Positions 2,623-23,549 of a DNA stretch of 64,000 bases are shown in pieces. The notes below the pieces were generated by a model, which was not told the origin of the DNA, ran no database searches, and worked only from the letters and a program-made list of their open reading frames with translations. Origin of the DNA: Bacteroidia bacterium. Lineage in GTDB: Bacteria; Bacteroidota; Bacteroidia; NS11-12g; UBA9320. The DNA lies in contig JAGYJG010000001.1 in the NCBI GenBank assembly GCA_018402155.1, forward strand, positions 632,198-696,197, in the 5' to 3' direction. How positions within the stretch are numbered: the first letter of the stretch is position 1; each line of letters opens with the position of its first letter. The position numbers were made by a program, and so were the translations under genes.

Positions 2623-3147
2623 TTGACGCGCAAGATAAAAAATCAAGACTTGAATAGGCTATCTGTTGAAAACTATAGGAAAGTTTCTAAGTCGCCAATC
2701 ATCGTTGTGCTTGACAATGTGCGCAGTATGCACAATGTAGGAGCTATATTTAGAACCAGCGATGCGTTTAGAGTGGCCAAAATATATTTATGTGGTATAA
2801 CCGCTACTCCGCCTCACCGCGATATTCGTAAAACAGCCTTAGGGGCAGAAGAAAGTGTAGAATGGAGTTATAGGGCAACCACTCAAGAAGCTATTGCAGA
2901 ACTAGCTGACTGCCATATCTGCGCTCTAGAGCAAGTACTCGGAAGTGTGCCCTTACGTGATGTACATTTGCCACAAGATAAAACTATTGTGTTAATTGTG
3001 GGTAATGAGGTGGATGGAGTAGATGAAAAATTACTTCAATTTTGTAACCAAGTAATTGAAATACCGCAATTTGGTACCAAGCACTCGTTCAATGTGTCAG
3101 TATCTGCTGGGATTACACTATGGGAAATTTTTAATAAAATTGGATGA
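2623..3147 (+). CDS. TrmH/SpoU-family RNA methyltransferase
   Basis: IVVLDNVRSMHNVGAIFRTSDAF, LIVGNEVDGVDEKLL and IPQFGTKHSFNVSVSAGITLWE SpoU motifs; TTG start. Confidence 0.9.
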   Translation: MTRKIKNQDLNRLSVENYRKVSKSPIIVVLDNVRSMHNVGAIFRTSDAFRVAKIYLCGITATPPHRDIRKTALGAEESVEWSYRATTQEAIAELADCHICALEQVLGSVPLRDVHLPQDKTIVLIVGNEVDGVDEKLLQFCNQVIEIPQFGTKHSFNVSVSAGITLWEIFNKIG

Positions 3148-5216
3148 ATAGAATTTATATACTACTTCTTTTAGCTTGTTTTATGCTAGCTTCATTTACT
3201 TCTGCAGAGGCAAATGAAGCACTTACCAAATACGCAGATAAAATTGCAAAAGAACAACGTAGGATAGATTTGCTAGATGGGAGCGAAGATCAACAAGTGA
3301 TATTAAAAAGTTCCTTGCAAAGTAATCGTGCTACTCATACTTATCTGATTTCTCCAAAAAATATTACAGATGTTATTCTTGCAAATACTTTAAGTACAGA
3401 TGCACAAAAGATAAGTCAACTTTCACGAATCAACGATTTACTAAAAGATGTTACTAGTAAGAATGTACATTTTTATACCCAGTTTAGTCTTGTTTTTAAT
3501 CTTATAGAAAAAGTGCAAACTGTTAAAGAGGATCTTCGGCTAGAATCTATTTTGCGAAGTAACGTACTCGCTTCTCTCAACTTAATTGCATTTTATATAG
3601 ACAGACCTGGAGCCGAGCGTTTTTTTAAAATAGCTGCACAGAGCGATCCCTCAGAACTACTCAAGCATTACAGCGAATTTGACCATAAACCTTGGTGTGG
3701 TGCTGTGCTAGATCGAGTAGCTAGTGTAGCACCAATGAAAATTAAAACCTACCTACACAGTTGGAATAGTGTGCATCAAAAAATAAAAGGCAGCAGCAAT
3801 GAACTAACGGAATTGGTTTATGAAATATTTCGAGAAAAAGGAACCGCTACTCGCGCTTACATTCTGCTAAACGATATATACAATTCCAAACTGACCATAG
3901 ATGAAGCACATGAAATAGCCAAGTTTGACAGTACCCTTTTTGAATACCTTATCACGATGCGGGCAGATATAAATCTTCTTGGAGAGCACTCAGTAGATGA
4001 GGCCTTGAAACATCAGTGCCTGAAACATGTGAGAGAAATAAATGACCTTCATGAGGAGACGGATGCTTACCGATTTGCTAGTTTAAAAAAGTTTAGCGCA
4101 GCAGAGATTTATACCCTATTGGTATACAGCGAAGATGAAATTTATACCAGTACCTTTTTGGGAATGTATGAGCGAATGATGACCAAACTGGGTACTGAGG
4201 ATAGTTATCAGTTTCTAGATGGTCTAAATTTCAATCAGTTTCGAACCTTTATAAAAATGTGTGCTGGTTACAATGAGCTTCATTCTTTCTTGGATAAAAT
4301 GGGAGAGTGGGAAAAGCAACAACTTTTTGTCAAGCTAGTAGAAGGAATAGAAAAAGCTAATGACAACCTTAGCAGCGCCGTGGCAATAGCAGATACGTAT
4401 GGAAGTCTCAGAAATGCTGGTAGTAAATACTTATTTGAACAGGCCATACTCAGTTATTATCAAAAAATACGATATTCGGATGTAGAAGCTGAAAAACTAT
4501 ACAGAATTTTACTACATGTTTTTCAAATAGGAGAGACCAGTGTAAGCGAAGAACTCAACAAACAGGCCTTTAATCTGAAAATATTGCCTATAGACCGTAT
4601 ATATAAAGAAGGTAAAAATGTACAGCAGCATTTTTTCTTTGATGATCCAGATGGTAAAGCTAGCTATGCACATTTTTTGGCAACCTTCGGAAATGGTAAC
4701 TGGAATATATTAGATAAAGGAACCTATGTGCTTCTAAAAAGCAGAACAGGTATGGCCATAGAAATATATGCCAACAAGCCTACAAGCGAATATGCAGGTC
4801 AAGATGATATAAAAGCTTATTTTACCAGTACAGGTAGATGGCCAGATGTAGTAGTTCATCGTGGACACTCCTACTTTGCTAGTGCTGCTATAGAGAGTCT
4901 AACTCCTAGTGCTGAAATTGTTTTTTTAGGCTCGTGTGGTGGGTATAATAACATCAGCCAAGTGTTAAAATATTCGCCAGATGCACAAATCATTAGTAGT
5001 AAACAGATTGGCACTATGCAGGTAAATGACATACTTGCCCTAGAGCTAAATGAGATAATACGCAGAGGGCAAGATATAGTATGGGATAATCTTTGGGCCA
5101 ATTTAGATAAGAAATTTGCGAAAGGAAGTTCAGCAGAAAGCCGTTTTCAAGACTATATCCCACCGCATAAAAACCTTGGAGCCCTGCTCATAAAAACGTA
5201 CCGGAGCATTTTATAA
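3144..5216 (+). CDS. secreted protein of unknown function with candidate C-terminal clan CD cysteine-peptidase-like domain
   Basis: N-terminal signal peptide (MNRIYILLLLACFMLASFTSAEA); helical middle; C-terminal DVVVHRGHSYFASAAI...AEIVFLGSCGGYNNISQVL; 4-nt overlap with the upstream gene. Confidence 0.6.
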   Translation: MNRIYILLLLACFMLASFTSAEANEALTKYADKIAKEQRRIDLLDGSEDQQVILKSSLQSNRATHTYLISPKNITDVILANTLSTDAQKISQLSRINDLLKDVTSKNVHFYTQFSLVFNLIEKVQTVKEDLRLESILRSNVLASLNLIAFYIDRPGAERFFKIAAQSDPSELLKHYSEFDHKPWCGAVLDRVASVAPMKIKTYLHSWNSVHQKIKGSSNELTELVYEIFREKGTATRAYILLNDIYNSKLTIDEAHEIAKFDSTLFEYLITMRADINLLGEHSVDEALKHQCLKHVREINDLHEETDAYRFASLKKFSAAEIYTLLVYSEDEIYTSTFLGMYERMMTKLGTEDSYQFLDGLNFNQFRTFIKMCAGYNELHSFLDKMGEWEKQQLFVKLVEGIEKANDNLSSAVAIADTYGSLRNAGSKYLFEQAILSYYQKIRYSDVEAEKLYRILLHVFQIGETSVSEELNKQAFNLKILPIDRIYKEGKNVQQHFFFDDPDGKASYAHFLATFGNGNWNILDKGTYVLLKSRTGMAIEIYANKPTSEYAGQDDIKAYFTSTGRWPDVVVHRGHSYFASAAIESLTPSAEIVFLGSCGGYNNISQVLKYSPDAQIISSKQIGTMQVNDILALELNEIIRRGQDIVWDNLWANLDKKFAKGSSAESRFQDYIPPHKNLGALLIKTYRSIL

Positions 5217-16681: not shown

Positions 16682-17818
16682 CTAACGTGCAATTATAAGT
16701 TTTGTTGAGTTAATGTAAGATTCTTCTATGGTATAAATGCTAAAGGTATACAAACCATTGCTAACCGAAGGCACAGGTATTTTGGTCCCTACGAAGACCT
16801 CTTCACTCGCAACCTCTTGACCTATTGAGTTATACAGTTTATACAACACTTTGTCTTGACCATCGACCAAAAAATGAAAATTACTTTTTGCTGGATTTGG
16901 AAATAAAAAAAAATTGGAAGATACGCTTCCATTGTCTAGGGGTCTTGCAAAATAGAGTGATGCAGCGAGTGCTCCCTGAATTACTTGAGAGGTGGCATCG
17001 GTGTCCATATTAAAAACTCGATCGGATAAGCTATGCGAAAAAAAACTATAATCACTTTCTTGGTAAATTCCCGTAATAACATAACCATTTTTTTCGAATG
17101 GCATGTAGTCTGTACTAAATGCTGGTCCAAATACGGGTTCTAAAACTGTATAATCTCTAAAAATCTGTGCTAAAGTATCTGTTTTTTTAAACGACATTTC
17201 GTCATTTGTACTTACCCGATTTCCCTCATCACGTTCACAAGTTATTTTGCTATTATCTTGGTATCGTGTACCGCCGAGCTGGTCCAAATTTAGCATCACG
17301 CTGATATTATCATTAGGATTTAAGGTGTTTGCTACATAATGTTCGCTGCCAAGTAAACCTTGTTCTTCCGCACTGAAATTGATAATTCGGACACTGAGTT
17401 GAGTCGGTATTTCAGCAATAAGTCGTGCTATTTCCATAGTGGCTACTACACCGCTACCATTATCATTGGCTCCATAGCTATCGGTCACTGAGTCATAGTG
17501 TGCGCCTACTATTACCCAAGTAGAGGTATCAGCACCCAGCTTCTCAATTATAATATTGCTAGCCCATTGATTTCTTACTTTAAAACTATCTTGTACGACT
17601 TGGTATCCCAAGTTTTGATAATAGGTGGTAAGCCATTTATTGACCAAGCTATTTGCTAAAGATCCGGTAAATTTTGGCCCAAAATCTTCATATGTCAATA
17701 GTTTTTCGGGGATGTTTGCTACTTTTTTTACCTGTTGTGCTATCACAGGGGAATAGCGCTGAGCAAGTACAATATTGACTGAGAAGCATAAAATTATGAG
17801 AAGATAAACTTTCTGCAT
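16682..17818 (-). CDS. M28-family secreted aminopeptidase with T9SS C-terminal sorting domain
   Basis: Signal peptide; GAHYDSV, GANDNGSGVVATMEIARL, NFSAEEQGLLGSEHYV; C-terminus FLFPNPAKSNFHF...NGLYTFSIY. Confidence 0.93.
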   Translation of the reverse strand: MQKVYLLIILCFSVNIVLAQRYSPVIAQQVKKVANIPEKLLTYEDFGPKFTGSLANSLVNKWLTTYYQNLGYQVVQDSFKVRNQWASNIIIEKLGADTSTWVIVGAHYDSVTDSYGANDNGSGVVATMEIARLIAEIPTQLSVRIINFSAEEQGLLGSEHYVANTLNPNDNISVMLNLDQLGGTRYQDNSKITCERDEGNRVSTNDEMSFKKTDTLAQIFRDYTVLEPVFGPAFSTDYMPFEKNGYVITGIYQESDYSFFSHSLSDRVFNMDTDATSQVIQGALAASLYFARPLDNGSVSSNFFLFPNPAKSNFHFLVDGQDKVLYKLYNSIGQEVASEEVFVGTKIPVPSVSNGLYTFSIYTIEESYINSTKLIIAR

Positions 17819-18218: not shown

Positions 18219-19778
18219 TTACTTTGGTTCTAAAGTTACTATAGGAATCATCATTTCTTCCATACTTATACCACCGTGCTGAAAGGTGTCTTTGTAGTAT
18301 TTTGCGTAGTGATTTAGATTATTGGGGTATACAAAAAAATCATTTTCTCTACTAAAAATGAAGCTACTACTTATATGAAGCTTTGGGAGCATAGCGTCAT
18401 GTGGATTTTTTATCTCAAATACCTCTTTAGGTTCGTAGGTTATTCTTCTGCCTGTTTTGTATCGTAGGTTTGTTGTAGTGTCTTTATCTCCTTGTATTTT
18501 TACGGTTCTATCTACTCGTACACTCCCGTGATCTGTCGTTATTATTATTTTTACACCCTTTGCGCTCAAAAACCGAATAGCCTCAAGCAGTGGAGAGTGT
18601 TCGAACCAACTTAAGGTAAGTGCTCTATATGCAGCTTCATTCTCGGCCAGTTCGCGTACTATTTTACTATCGGTTCGTGCGTGAGACAGAGTATCTATAA
18701 AGTTATAAACGATAGTAACAAATTCGTCTTGTAGCAGGTTTGGAAGTTGCTCTACCATTTGCTTGGCATTTGTGAGGTTAGTCACTTTGATATATTTAGG
18801 TTCATATCCAGTTCTTAGTCTCTTAAATAGATCACTTAAAAAAAAGGCTTCATTCAAATTTCTACCACCTTCTTCCTCATCATTGCACCATTTATCACCA
18901 TATTTTCGCTCTATATCCATAGGCATCATTCCACTAAAGATAGCATTTCGTGCATATTGTGTTGTAGTTGGCAATATACTCATATACATATCTTCATTTG
19001 TGGTGCGATAAAATTTGCTTATTTCTGTTTGTATAACTTTCCATTGGTCAAATCGAAGGTTATCCAACAGTAGCAGAAATAGAGGTTCACCTTTTACTTT
19101 GTGGGGTAAAACACCTCTTTTCATAAGGTTATGCGACATCATAGGAGCGTCCTCATTATCTGCTTTTGCCGATAAAAAATGTATATAATTTTTACTGATG
19201 TATTTACTAAACTCTCTATTACCCTCTTGCTTTTGGGTTTTTAGTATCTCTTCCATACCCGTTTCTTCAGAGCTAGCCATCTCTATTTCCCAGTAAACAA
19301 GTTTTCTGTACATTTCTTTCCATTTTGGCCAGTCCATATAATCCATAAAAGCCATGCCAATATTTCTGAAATCTTGCTGATATCGTTGTGTTACACTTTC
19401 TGTTTCGAGTCGTTTTCCATCAGTTAATTTTTTTATTGTACTAAGTATTTGTCTTGGATTTACTGGTTTTATGAGGTAATCTGCAATTTTACTGCCAATT
19501 GCATCTTCCATTATATGGTCTTCTTCATTTTTGGTAATCATTACTACCGGCAAATTTCCATCTATTTCCTTGATGATTTTTAGAGCCTCCAAACCAGAGA
19601 TACCCGGCATATTTTCGTCGAGAAAAACAAGATCGTAGTTCATCTCTTTCACCTTATCTGTAGCATCTAGACCGTTTGTAACGGTAGTTAATTCATATCC
19701 TCTTTCCTCCAAAAAAAGTAAATGTGCTTTGAGGTGGTCTATTTCGTCGTCTGCCCATAGTATTTTGATATTATTCAT
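18219..19778 (-). CDS. porX: two-component response regulator with PglZ-type C-terminal domain, PorX-like (T9SS regulator)
   Basis: Receiver domain ILWADDEIDHLKAHLLFLEERGYE...DLVFLDENMPGISGLEAL; C-terminal alkaline-phosphatase-like LLLLDNLRFDQWKVIQTEI...IITTDHGSVRV. Confidence 0.9.
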   Translation of the reverse strand: MNNIKILWADDEIDHLKAHLLFLEERGYELTTVTNGLDATDKVKEMNYDLVFLDENMPGISGLEALKIIKEIDGNLPVVMITKNEEDHIMEDAIGSKIADYLIKPVNPRQILSTIKKLTDGKRLETESVTQRYQQDFRNIGMAFMDYMDWPKWKEMYRKLVYWEIEMASSEETGMEEILKTQKQEGNREFSKYISKNYIHFLSAKADNEDAPMMSHNLMKRGVLPHKVKGEPLFLLLLDNLRFDQWKVIQTEISKFYRTTNEDMYMSILPTTTQYARNAIFSGMMPMDIERKYGDKWCNDEEEGGRNLNEAFFLSDLFKRLRTGYEPKYIKVTNLTNAKQMVEQLPNLLQDEFVTIVYNFIDTLSHARTDSKIVRELAENEAAYRALTLSWFEHSPLLEAIRFLSAKGVKIIITTDHGSVRVDRTVKIQGDKDTTTNLRYKTGRRITYEPKEVFEIKNPHDAMLPKLHISSSFIFSRENDFFVYPNNLNHYAKYYKDTFQHGGISMEEMMIPIVTLEPK

Positions 19779-21112: not shown

Positions 21113-22156
21113 GTGAACTTAAAAGCAGCACAAATAGCAGAAATTATAAACGGAACAGTAGAAGGTGACTCCTCAGTATTAGTGAGTTCAGTCTCCAAAA
21201 TAGAAGACGCAACACCAGGTAGTTTATGTTTTTTGTCCAATATAAAATATAAACAATATCTACAAGATACCAAAGCATCAATTGTACTAGTTGGTGAAGA
21301 AGTAAATAATATACCTGAGCATATTACTGTGATTCGGTGTACTCATCCCTATGTGGCTTTCTGTACTATTCTAATTCATTACTTTGACTACAAAGACCCG
21401 AATACTGGCATACACCCGACTGCAGTAATAGAGCCTAGCGCCAAAGTAGGAGCTAATTGTCACATTGGTGCACATGCCTACATTGGAAAGAATGTAGTGA
21501 TAGGTGAAAACAGTAAAGTTTTTGCCAATAGTTGTATATATGAAGATAGCAAAATAGGAGAAAACACAGTTTTATACTCCAACGTATCTGTGTATTATAA
21601 AACGGTAATTGGCAATGACTGCATAATACATAGTGGAACGGTTCTAGGTTCAGATGGATTTGGACATGCACCTCTGCCAGATGGCTCCTACATTAAAATT
21701 CCGCAAATAGGAAATGTGGTAATAGGGAACAAAGTTGAAATAGGAAGCAATACGAGTATAGACCGAGCTAATATGGGTAGTACGGTAATAAAAGATGGTT
21801 GTAGAATAGATAACTTAGTGCAGATAGCCCACGGTGTAGAAATAGGAAAAAATACGGTAATTGCTGGGGGTAGTTGCATAGCAGGAAGTGCAAAAATAGG
21901 TGCTAATTGTATATTTGCTGGACAAAGTGGGGTCGTAGGCCATGTAACTGTAGCAGACCGCACGCAACTAGGCGGACAAGCTGGTATAAATAAAGATATT
22001 ATAGAACCTGGAGGGATTTTTTCCGGATCACCACATCTGCCTTTTAAAGAAGAAATGAAGTCGCGTGTTTTATGGAGAAATTTACCAAAATTAGAACAAC
22101 GAATCCGTGACTTGGAACAACAATTAAAAATGATAAATAAATCTAGCAATGGATAA
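21113..22156 (+). CDS. lpxD: UDP-3-O-acylglucosamine N-acyltransferase
   Basis: Hexapeptide repeats; IHSGTVLGSDGFGHAPLPDGSYIKIPQIGNVVIGNKVEIGSNTSIDRANMGSTVI. Confidence 0.95.
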   Translation: MNLKAAQIAEIINGTVEGDSSVLVSSVSKIEDATPGSLCFLSNIKYKQYLQDTKASIVLVGEEVNNIPEHITVIRCTHPYVAFCTILIHYFDYKDPNTGIHPTAVIEPSAKVGANCHIGAHAYIGKNVVIGENSKVFANSCIYEDSKIGENTVLYSNVSVYYKTVIGNDCIIHSGTVLGSDGFGHAPLPDGSYIKIPQIGNVVIGNKVEIGSNTSIDRANMGSTVIKDGCRIDNLVQIAHGVEIGKNTVIAGGSCIAGSAKIGANCIFAGQSGVVGHVTVADRTQLGGQAGINKDIIEPGGIFSGSPHLPFKEEMKSRVLWRNLPKLEQRIRDLEQQLKMINKSSNG

Positions 22157-23549
22157 ATTACAAACTACCTTAAAAGCACCTGTAACGGTTTCAGGTGTTG
22201 GACTTCATACCGGCAATTTGGTCAATTTAACTTTTGAGCCTGCCCCAGAAAATCACGGGTATGTTTTTCAACGAATAGACCTCGAGGGTCAACCAAAAGT
22301 GAAAGCAGATTGCGACTTAGTGGTAGATACTAGCAGGGGAACTACTCTAGAAGATAATGGCGCAAGAGTAGGCACTGTGGAGCATGTGCTTGCCGCACTT
22401 GCAGGTCTAGAAATAGATAATTGTCTTATAAAACTAGACGCTTCCGAAACCCCCATAATGGACGGGAGTAGCAAACCTTTTATAGATGTACTGCTGGCTA
22501 CAGGTATAGAAACTCAGAAAAAAGAACGTGAGTATTTTGAAATACCCAAACGTATTAACTATTCCGATGGCAAAGGAGTAGAAATGATGGCTTTACCAGC
22601 TGATGAATATAGACTAACTGTGATGGTAGATTATAATTCACCTGTGTTGGGAAGCCAACACGCAAGTATTGTTAATCTAACCGAATTTAAAGATGAGATA
22701 TCTAGCTGCCGAACATTTTGTTTTTTGCATGAGCTAGAGATGCTAGTAAAAAACGATTTAATAAAAGGAGGTGATTTAAATAATGCTATTGTAATAGTAG
22801 ATAGAGCTATTGAAGACGAGGAAATGGAAAGCTTAGCTAAGCTTTTCAATAAAGATAAAATTGCGGTAAAAAAGGAAGGAATTCTAAACAATGTTGAGCT
22901 TAGGTTTCAAAACGAACCAGCACGCCACAAGCTTTTAGATATGGTAGGAGACCTAGCCCTTGCAGGTGTGCCGCTCAAAGCACAAATACTGGCCGCAAGG
23001 CCAGGTCATGCAGCCAATGTAGCCTTTGCAAAAAAAATAAAGAAAGCCTACTTGGAAGCAAAAAAAGCAAAAAAAGAAGATATTACACCTCAGTACGATC
23101 CAAATGTTACACCCGTTTTTAATCACCAAGAAATAGGTAGAATTTTGCCGCACAAACATCCATTCCTTTTGGTAGATAAAGTGGTTAAAATTTCTAGTGA
23201 AGAAGTAATAGCCGTGAAAAATATTACAGGAGACCAGTATTTTTTTCAAGGTCATTTCCCACATGAACCAATAATGCCAGGGGTGTTGCAGCTGGAAGCT
23301 ATGGCACAGGCAGGTGGTGTACTGGTATTAGCAGATAAGGAAAACCCTGAAAAATGGAGTACTTATTTTGTTAAAATTGAAAATGCTAAATTTAAGGATA
23401 AAGTAGTGCCTGGCGATACTCTAGTGATACGTATGGCACTCACTGGCCCAGTGCGCAGGGGTCTTTGCATGATGAAAGGTGAAGCTTTTGTAGGCAATAA
23501 AATGGTGTGCGAAGCCAGTATGATGGCACAAATAGTAGAAAACAAATAA
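22149..23549 (+). CDS. lpxC/fabZ: bifunctional UDP-3-O-acyl-N-acetylglucosamine deacetylase / 3-hydroxyacyl-ACP dehydratase
   Basis: LpxC: VSGVGLHTGNLVNLTFEPAPENHGYVFQRIDL, TVEHVLAALAGLEIDNCLIKLDASETPIMDGS; FabZ: ILPHKHPFLLVDKV, GHFPHEPIMPGVLQLEAMAQAGG in one frame. Confidence 0.97.
   Translation: MDKLQTTLKAPVTVSGVGLHTGNLVNLTFEPAPENHGYVFQRIDLEGQPKVKADCDLVVDTSRGTTLEDNGARVGTVEHVLAALAGLEIDNCLIKLDASETPIMDGSSKPFIDVLLATGIETQKKEREYFEIPKRINYSDGKGVEMMALPADEYRLTVMVDYNSPVLGSQHASIVNLTEFKDEISSCRTFCFLHELEMLVKNDLIKGGDLNNAIVIVDRAIEDEEMESLAKLFNKDKIAVKKEGILNNVELRFQNEPARHKLLDMVGDLALAGVPLKAQILAARPGHAANVAFAKKIKKAYLEAKKAKKEDITPQYDPNVTPVFNHQEIGRILPHKHPFLLVDKVVKISSEEVIAVKNITGDQYFFQGHFPHEPIMPGVLQLEAMAQAGGVLVLADKENPEKWSTYFVKIENAKFKDKVVPGDTLVIRMALTGPVRRGLCMMKGEAFVGNKMVCEASMMAQIVENK

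What the first reader, a model, noticed from the sequence alone, without database searches (positions are those of the whole stretch)
3144..5216. Secreted 690-aa protein with a possible caspase/gingipain/CHAT-like (clan CD) catalytic dyad at its C-terminus
Seen: a signal peptide, about 500 residues of helical sequence I do not recognise, then DVVVHRGHSYFASAAIESLTPSAEIVFLGSCGGYNNISQVLKYSPDAQIISSKQIGTMQVND. His572 and His575 (HRGH, about 4857-4868) follow a hydrophobic strand; Cys598 (GSCGG, 4935-4937) follows a second hydrophobic strand about 23 residues later. Established: clan CD peptidases (C14 caspases, C25 gingipains, CHAT domains) place the catalytic His after one strand (usually with a following Gly) and the Cys after the next strand in a hydrophobic-(S/A)C(x)G context. 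Inference: this is a divergent secreted clan CD-like domain on a large helical scaffold.
Basis: partly seen in the sequence, partly recalled or inferred. Interest (0 to 1): 0.62.

Follow-up and report, generated by a model that had tools for sequence, protein, structure and literature searches.

The report
New exported caspase-like putative protease family
The gene encodes an exported protein of an undescribed family, nearly universal in one large family of Bacteroidota and present in a few soil proteobacteria, whose C-terminal domain carries a strictly conserved histidine and cysteine placed as in caspase-type proteases, so it is probably a new kind of caspase-like enzyme whose target is unknown.

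Summary
In detail: a 690-aa ORF at 3144-5216 (+) with a signal-peptide-like N-terminus, a helical middle, HRGH at 4857-4868 and Cys598 at 4935-4937. Among 197 non-redundant homologous domains (median identity 43%) only 11 of 202 columns are fully invariant; they include H575 and C598. H572 is N or Q in three, so H575-C598 is the likelier dyad. Azospirillum homologues, from another phylum and about 21% identical, keep HRGHSY and GSCGG. AlphaFold2 gives a confident C-terminal domain (pLDDT 93, pTM 0.90) with the clan CD order, His after β3 and Cys after β4. Against it: no Pfam, NCBIfam or PDB sequence match; Foldseek's listed PDB hits are mainly small GTPases at low TM, with no caspase; one C11 clan CD peptidase appears among viral models. 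β6 and the Gly after His are missing. Best reading: a new family of exported clan CD-like Cys/His hydrolases on a helical scaffold, most likely a peptidase. Activity and substrate are untested.

The parts
3144..5216 (+). ORF, 690 aa, exported helical-scaffold protein with C-terminal clan CD-like domain
   Evidence: homologues
3144..3212 (+). putative signal peptide, residues 1-23 (SAEA|N)
   Evidence: read from the sequence; similar hydrophobic N-termini in homologues; no predictor run
3213..4592 (+). helical scaffold, residues 24-483
   Evidence: AlphaFold2 model, essentially all helix up to residue 486; weak Foldseek resemblance to HEAT-repeat karyopherins
4041..4163 (+). most conserved stretch of the scaffold, residues 300-340 (NDLHEE..RF......YTSTFLG)
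   Evidence: N300, H303, R310, F311, T335, S336, G340 at least 95% conserved; RF and TS...G kept in Azospirillum
4593..5213 (+). C-terminal alpha/beta domain, residues 484-690
   Evidence: AlphaFold2 pLDDT 93.2, pTM 0.90
4644..4655 (+). D501-x-D503-G504 at the beta1-alpha1 junction, predicted S1-pocket region
   Evidence: each at least 97% conserved in 197 domains; role by analogy to PMC4357240
4857..4871 (+). HRGHS, residues 572-576, end of beta3; H575 putative catalytic His
   Evidence: R573, G574, H575, S576 in 197/197, H572 in 194/197
4929..4943 (+). GSCGG, residues 596-600, end of beta4; C598 putative nucleophile
   Evidence: G596, C598, G599 fully invariant in 197 domains
5025..5096 (+). 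N628, W647, W651 of the region after beta5
   Evidence: W647 in 197/197, N628 and W651 in 196/197
2623..3147 (+). upstream gene, TrmH/SpoU-type RNA methyltransferase by appearance, overlapping the ORF by ATGA
   Evidence: same neighbour in many relatives of the order

Best explanation
An exported (periplasmic or extracellular) Cys/His hydrolase, most likely an endopeptidase of clan CD type, in a family that has not been described. The C-terminal domain is a compact caspase-like alpha/beta fold in which H575 (end of beta3) activates C598 (end of beta4). The nearly invariant D501-x-D503-G at the beta1-alpha1 junction would line the S1 pocket and predicts cleavage after Arg or Lys. The 460-residue helical, solenoid-like scaffold holds substrate or keeps the active site shut, as helical parts do in separase and TPR-CHAT. 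Shown here: the family, the invariant His and Cys, the predicted fold and the order of its elements. Inferred: catalysis, peptidase chemistry, P1 specificity, role of the scaffold, location, and an envelope-protein substrate.
For: H575 and C598 invariant in 197 non-redundant domains with pairwise identity down to 24%, and HRGHSY/GSCGG kept in Azospirillum. Confident AlphaFold2 models with the clan CD element order. Covariation pairs beta1 with beta2b and beta3, beta4 with beta5, and links V570 (beta3) to A590 just before beta4, in keeping with order 2-1-3-4-5. A C11 clan CD peptidase is fourth among viral models, E 3.2e-3, probability 0.85. Weak profile alignments set Cys on Cys for CHAT and C14. 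Gly-His and hydrophobic-strand-x-x-Cys contexts resemble those of fetched C14, C25 and CHAT proteins. Kept in 97 of 100 genomes of family f37.
Against: No caspase, gingipain, legumain or clostripain among the 50 listed PDB fold matches; the top ones are mainly GTPases at TM 0.3-0.4. No curated family matches the window protein. Antiparallel beta6 is not predicted; the residue after the His is Ser, not Gly; the His-Cys spacing of 23 is shorter than in the CHAT (39-52), C25 (34-35) and C14 (42-62) proteins fetched. Direct beta3-beta4 strand covariation scored low. No activity, substrate or conserved partner is known.
Confidence: 0.7

Rival explanations
1. A clan CD-like transpeptidase, amidase or ligase rather than a protease: the same His-Cys site forms an acyl-enzyme that is passed to another amine, as the C25-family sortase PorU does in type IX secretion.
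For: The active-site evidence is identical; C25 proteins are present in this genome. An exported enzyme kept across a lineage would fit an envelope assembly step.
Against: No conserved neighbour suggests an attachment system; homologues also occur in Azospirillum, outside Bacteroidota.
Confidence: 0.13
2. A class I glutamine-amidotransferase or DJ-1-type nucleophile-elbow enzyme: GSCGGY is the elbow, and the upstream His is structural.
For: 18 of 112 members match Pfam GATase_3 weakly, best E 7e-4; the GxCGGY motif looks alike.
Against: Class I amidotransferases place the catalytic His after the Cys (general knowledge); no His after C598 is conserved (position 675 is Y, H, N, D or Q), while a His before it is invariant. 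The window protein itself does not match GATase_3.
Confidence: 0.08
3. A non-catalytic Rossmann- or GTPase-like binding domain whose conserved His and Cys are structural or bind a metal or ligand.
For: Top Foldseek matches are small GTPases and other alpha/beta folds.
Against: No P-loop: position 505 is R, K, W, D or E in relatives. TM-scores are only 0.3-0.4. The core sheet order of GTPases (3-1-4-5-6) corresponds to clan CD 2-1-3-4-5, so the match does not discriminate. The invariant GHS and GxCG look like an active site.
Confidence: 0.09

Closest known systems
Separase (peptidase family C50)
   Same: [quoted passage not shown] the helical nature of that part is general knowledge
   Different: Exported bacterial protein here; no sequence match found; no securin-like partner known
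CHAT-domain proteins, including TPR-CHAT/Csx29 of Craspase
   Same: Helical N-terminal part plus C-terminal His-Cys domain; a second His just upstream (H-x3-H in 23 of 25 CHAT proteins fetched, H-x2-H here); residue after the His often not Gly in CHAT either; weak profile match with Cys on Cys
   Different: No CHAT match by Pfam; His-Cys spacing 23 against 39-52; signal peptide; no CRISPR neighbour seen
Gingipain/PorU (peptidase family C25)
   Same: Exported Bacteroidota proteins with Gly before the catalytic His; the S1 Asp of RgpB lies on alpha1 (PMC4357240), near where D501/D503 lie here
   Different: No C25 match; spacing 34-35 in the C25 proteins fetched; the peptidase domain is at the very C-terminus with no recognised sorting domain
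Clostripain (peptidase family C11)
   Same: The only named peptidase among the listed fold matches (viral model); Arg/Lys specificity would be shared if the S1 inference holds
   Different: C11 has an Asp two residues before the Cys (Asp177/Cys179 in PmC11, PMC4850288); here that residue is invariant Gly596

Membership tests
Clan CD (as described in PMC4357240) | Catalytic His at the C-terminal end of beta3 and Cys at the end of beta4, in that order | tested here: met
   Predicted beta3 569-573 with H572 and H575 at and after its end; beta4 592-596 then C598; H575 and C598 invariant in 197 domains. By predicted model, not solved structure
Clan CD (as described in PMC4357240) | Central sheet with parallel core order 2-1-3-4-5 | tested here: inconclusive
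   Covariation supports beta2b-beta1, beta1-beta3, beta4-beta5 and V570-A590; the beta3-beta4 strand score itself is low.
Clan CD (as described in PMC4357240) | Sixth, antiparallel strand | tested here: not met
   Only helices follow beta5 in the models, apart from a two-residue bridge; hence 'clan CD-like'
Clan CD (as described in PMC4357240) | Gly adjacent to the catalytic His | tested here: inconclusive
   G574 is invariant directly before H575; the usual Gly after the His is invariant Ser576. 14 of 25 CHAT proteins fetched also lack Gly there
Clan CD (as described in PMC4357240) | Structural match to a solved clan CD member | tested here: not met
   None in the listed top 50 of PDB; a C11 peptidase at rank 4 in viral models. 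Matches beyond rank 50 are not shown
Peptidase families C14 and C25, CHAT | Match to the family profile | tested here: not met
   No Pfam match of the family; hhalign probability at most 4%
Peptidase family C11 | Asp two residues before the catalytic Cys | tested here: not met
   Invariant Gly596 at that place
Class I glutamine amidotransferase | Conserved His after the nucleophile Cys | tested here: not met
   No conserved His after C598; position 675 is Y, H, N, D or Q
Small GTPase | P-loop GxxxxGK(S/T) | tested here: not met
   Position 505 is R, K, W, D or E in relatives
Cysteine peptidase | Cys-dependent cleavage of a peptide bond | not testable with these tools
   Needs an assay

The most novel reading that the evidence does not exclude
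The founding member of a new clan CD-like peptidase family: an exported protease whose minimal caspase-like domain is controlled by a fused helical solenoid, an envelope counterpart of the separase and TPR-CHAT design, kept as a near-universal gene in Chitinophagaceae and related Bacteroidota.
Probability: 0.5. Interest if true: 0.65.

Novelty: new variant of a known kind. Interest (0 to 1): 0.52.

Why it matters
A strictly conserved His-Cys protein, present in nearly every genome sampled from one large bacterial family yet unseen by Pfam, NCBIfam and PADLOC, would be a new enzyme family with an unknown but apparently important envelope role. It would also be a tractable bacterial case of a caspase-type domain coupled to a helical scaffold. 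Cultured Azospirillum strains (sp. B510, A. lipoferum 4B) carry homologues in which function can be tested.

Tried and rejected
GTPase reading, suggested by the top fold matches: no P-loop. Class I amidotransferase reading, suggested by weak GATase_3 matches: no conserved His after the Cys. CHAT, C25 or C14 membership: no profile match. C11 membership: no Asp before the Cys. Defence system: only a weak GajB match in the scaffold (E 0.004) of the window protein and none in two homologues. Phage carriage: no match in phage records or viral contigs. A conserved operon partner: none; MutS-like and TrmH-like genes lie upstream in the window's order, GlyA-like and PPK2-like genes flank it in f37 relatives (these names are by appearance). 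The first conservation run was wrong because minus-strand loci were read on the plus strand; redone. The full-length Foldseek search was dominated by weak solenoid matches. PMC4357240 prints the RgpB dyad as His221/Cys244 (spacing 23, as here); the C25 proteins fetched have 34-35, so I did not use that coincidence. Two paper searches for this family by name or motif context found nothing on it.

Full report
Observation. The N-terminus looks like a Sec signal peptide ending SAEA|N; homologues have similar hydrophobic N-termini, many followed by AN, AQ or SQ. No dedicated predictor was available, so export is inferred.

Family. No Pfam or NCBIfam family and no PDB chain matches the protein with useful significance, nor does its alignment. 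Homologues are found in 41 of 58 relatives of the same genus, family and order, in 97 of 100 genomes of another family of the same class, f37, and in no other sampled family of the class or phylum at a convincing score. Four Azospirillum megaplasmids carry a homologue, E down to 3e-30. The family was not found in phage records or viral contigs.

Conservation. In the 113 homologues that cover the sites, H572, R573, G574, H575, S576, G596, C598 and G599 were invariant. With further f37 sequences the set grew to 197 non-redundant domains, effective number 144, median pairwise identity 43% and minimum 24%. Eleven of 202 columns are fully invariant: R573, G574, H575, S576, G596, C598, G599, G623, W647, Y671, P674. 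H572 is replaced by N or Q in three sequences that keep the rest of the motif, so H575 is the likelier catalytic His. The Azospirillum proteins, about 21% identical overall, keep HRGHSY and GSCGG as well as D501, D503, G504, N628, W647 and W651.

Structure. AlphaFold2 on the full protein gives pLDDT 89.6 and pTM 0.82: helices up to residue 486, then an alpha/beta domain. On the domain alone, with 112 sequences, pLDDT is 93.2 and pTM 0.90. The order is beta1-alpha1-beta2-hairpin-alpha2-beta3-[His]-alpha3-beta4-[Cys]-alpha4-beta5-alpha5 and then three helices. This is the clan CD order described in PMC4357240 without beta6. Mean-field covariation computed here ranks beta1-beta2b, the beta2a-beta2b hairpin and beta1-beta3 high, then beta4-beta5, and its single strongest pair is V570 (beta3) with A590 next to beta4; the beta3-beta4 strand score itself is low. 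Together this favours sheet order 2-1-3-4-5. Flavodoxin-like sheets have the same order (general knowledge), so the position of His and Cys, not the order alone, points to clan CD.

Fold search. The best PDB matches are mainly small GTPases, E from 4e-4 and TM 0.3-0.4, and no clan CD member is among the 50 listed. Among viral models a C11 clostripain-related protease is fourth, E 3.2e-3, probability 0.85. Profile comparison with CHAT, C25 and C14 sets built here is weak (probability at most 4%), though CHAT and C14 align Cys on Cys. The GTPase matches probably reflect the shared sheet order; there is no P-loop.

Mechanism. By analogy to clan CD, H575 would activate C598. PMC4357240 attributes S1 specificity to the beta1-alpha1 region and two later loops; here D501-x-D503-G is nearly invariant at beta1-alpha1, and RgpB uses Asp163 on alpha1 to bind Arg. 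That predicts a basic P1 residue, as an inference only. The scaffold is conserved together with the domain (RF at 310-311, TS at 335-336 and G340 are kept into Azospirillum), so the two parts probably work as one unit. Its weak resemblance to HEAT-repeat proteins and its position before a C-terminal His-Cys domain recall separase and TPR-CHAT. Whether it gates the active site or recruits substrate is unknown.

Context. The gene overlaps a TrmH-like gene by ATGA and lies near a MutS-like gene in the window's order; in f37 it often lies between GlyA-like and PPK2-like genes. These look like unrelated housekeeping genes, so context gives no function. Three order relatives carry a longer tandem paralogue with two scaffold-like parts; the two copies read in full keep both motifs.

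Verdict. It should not be filed in any named peptidase family, and catalysis is untested.

Noticed in passing
L061:4543-8010, L065:4758-7988, L066:4598-7909: A longer tandem paralogue (1076-1155 aa) with what looks like two scaffold copies lies directly before the normal-length gene in three relatives, and it keeps HRGHS and GSCGG.
   Followed up: partly
L249:4473-6248, L250:3510-5726, L251:3618-5642 (Azospirillum megaplasmids): Homologues in Alphaproteobacteria, each beside a DUF1194 gene and a LysE-family transporter in three of four species; suggests an old transfer between phyla.
   Followed up: partly
window 18219-19778 (-): Protein with a response-regulator N-terminus and a long C-terminal part that resembles PorX of the type IX secretion system (recalled, not tested).
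   Followed up: no
window 16682-17818 (-): Secreted M28-like aminopeptidase by appearance, with a C-terminal stretch that looks like a type IX sorting domain (FPNPAKSNF...).
   Followed up: no
window 22149-23549 (+): Single ORF that looks like a fused LpxC-FabZ, between LpxD-like and LpxA-like genes.
   Followed up: no
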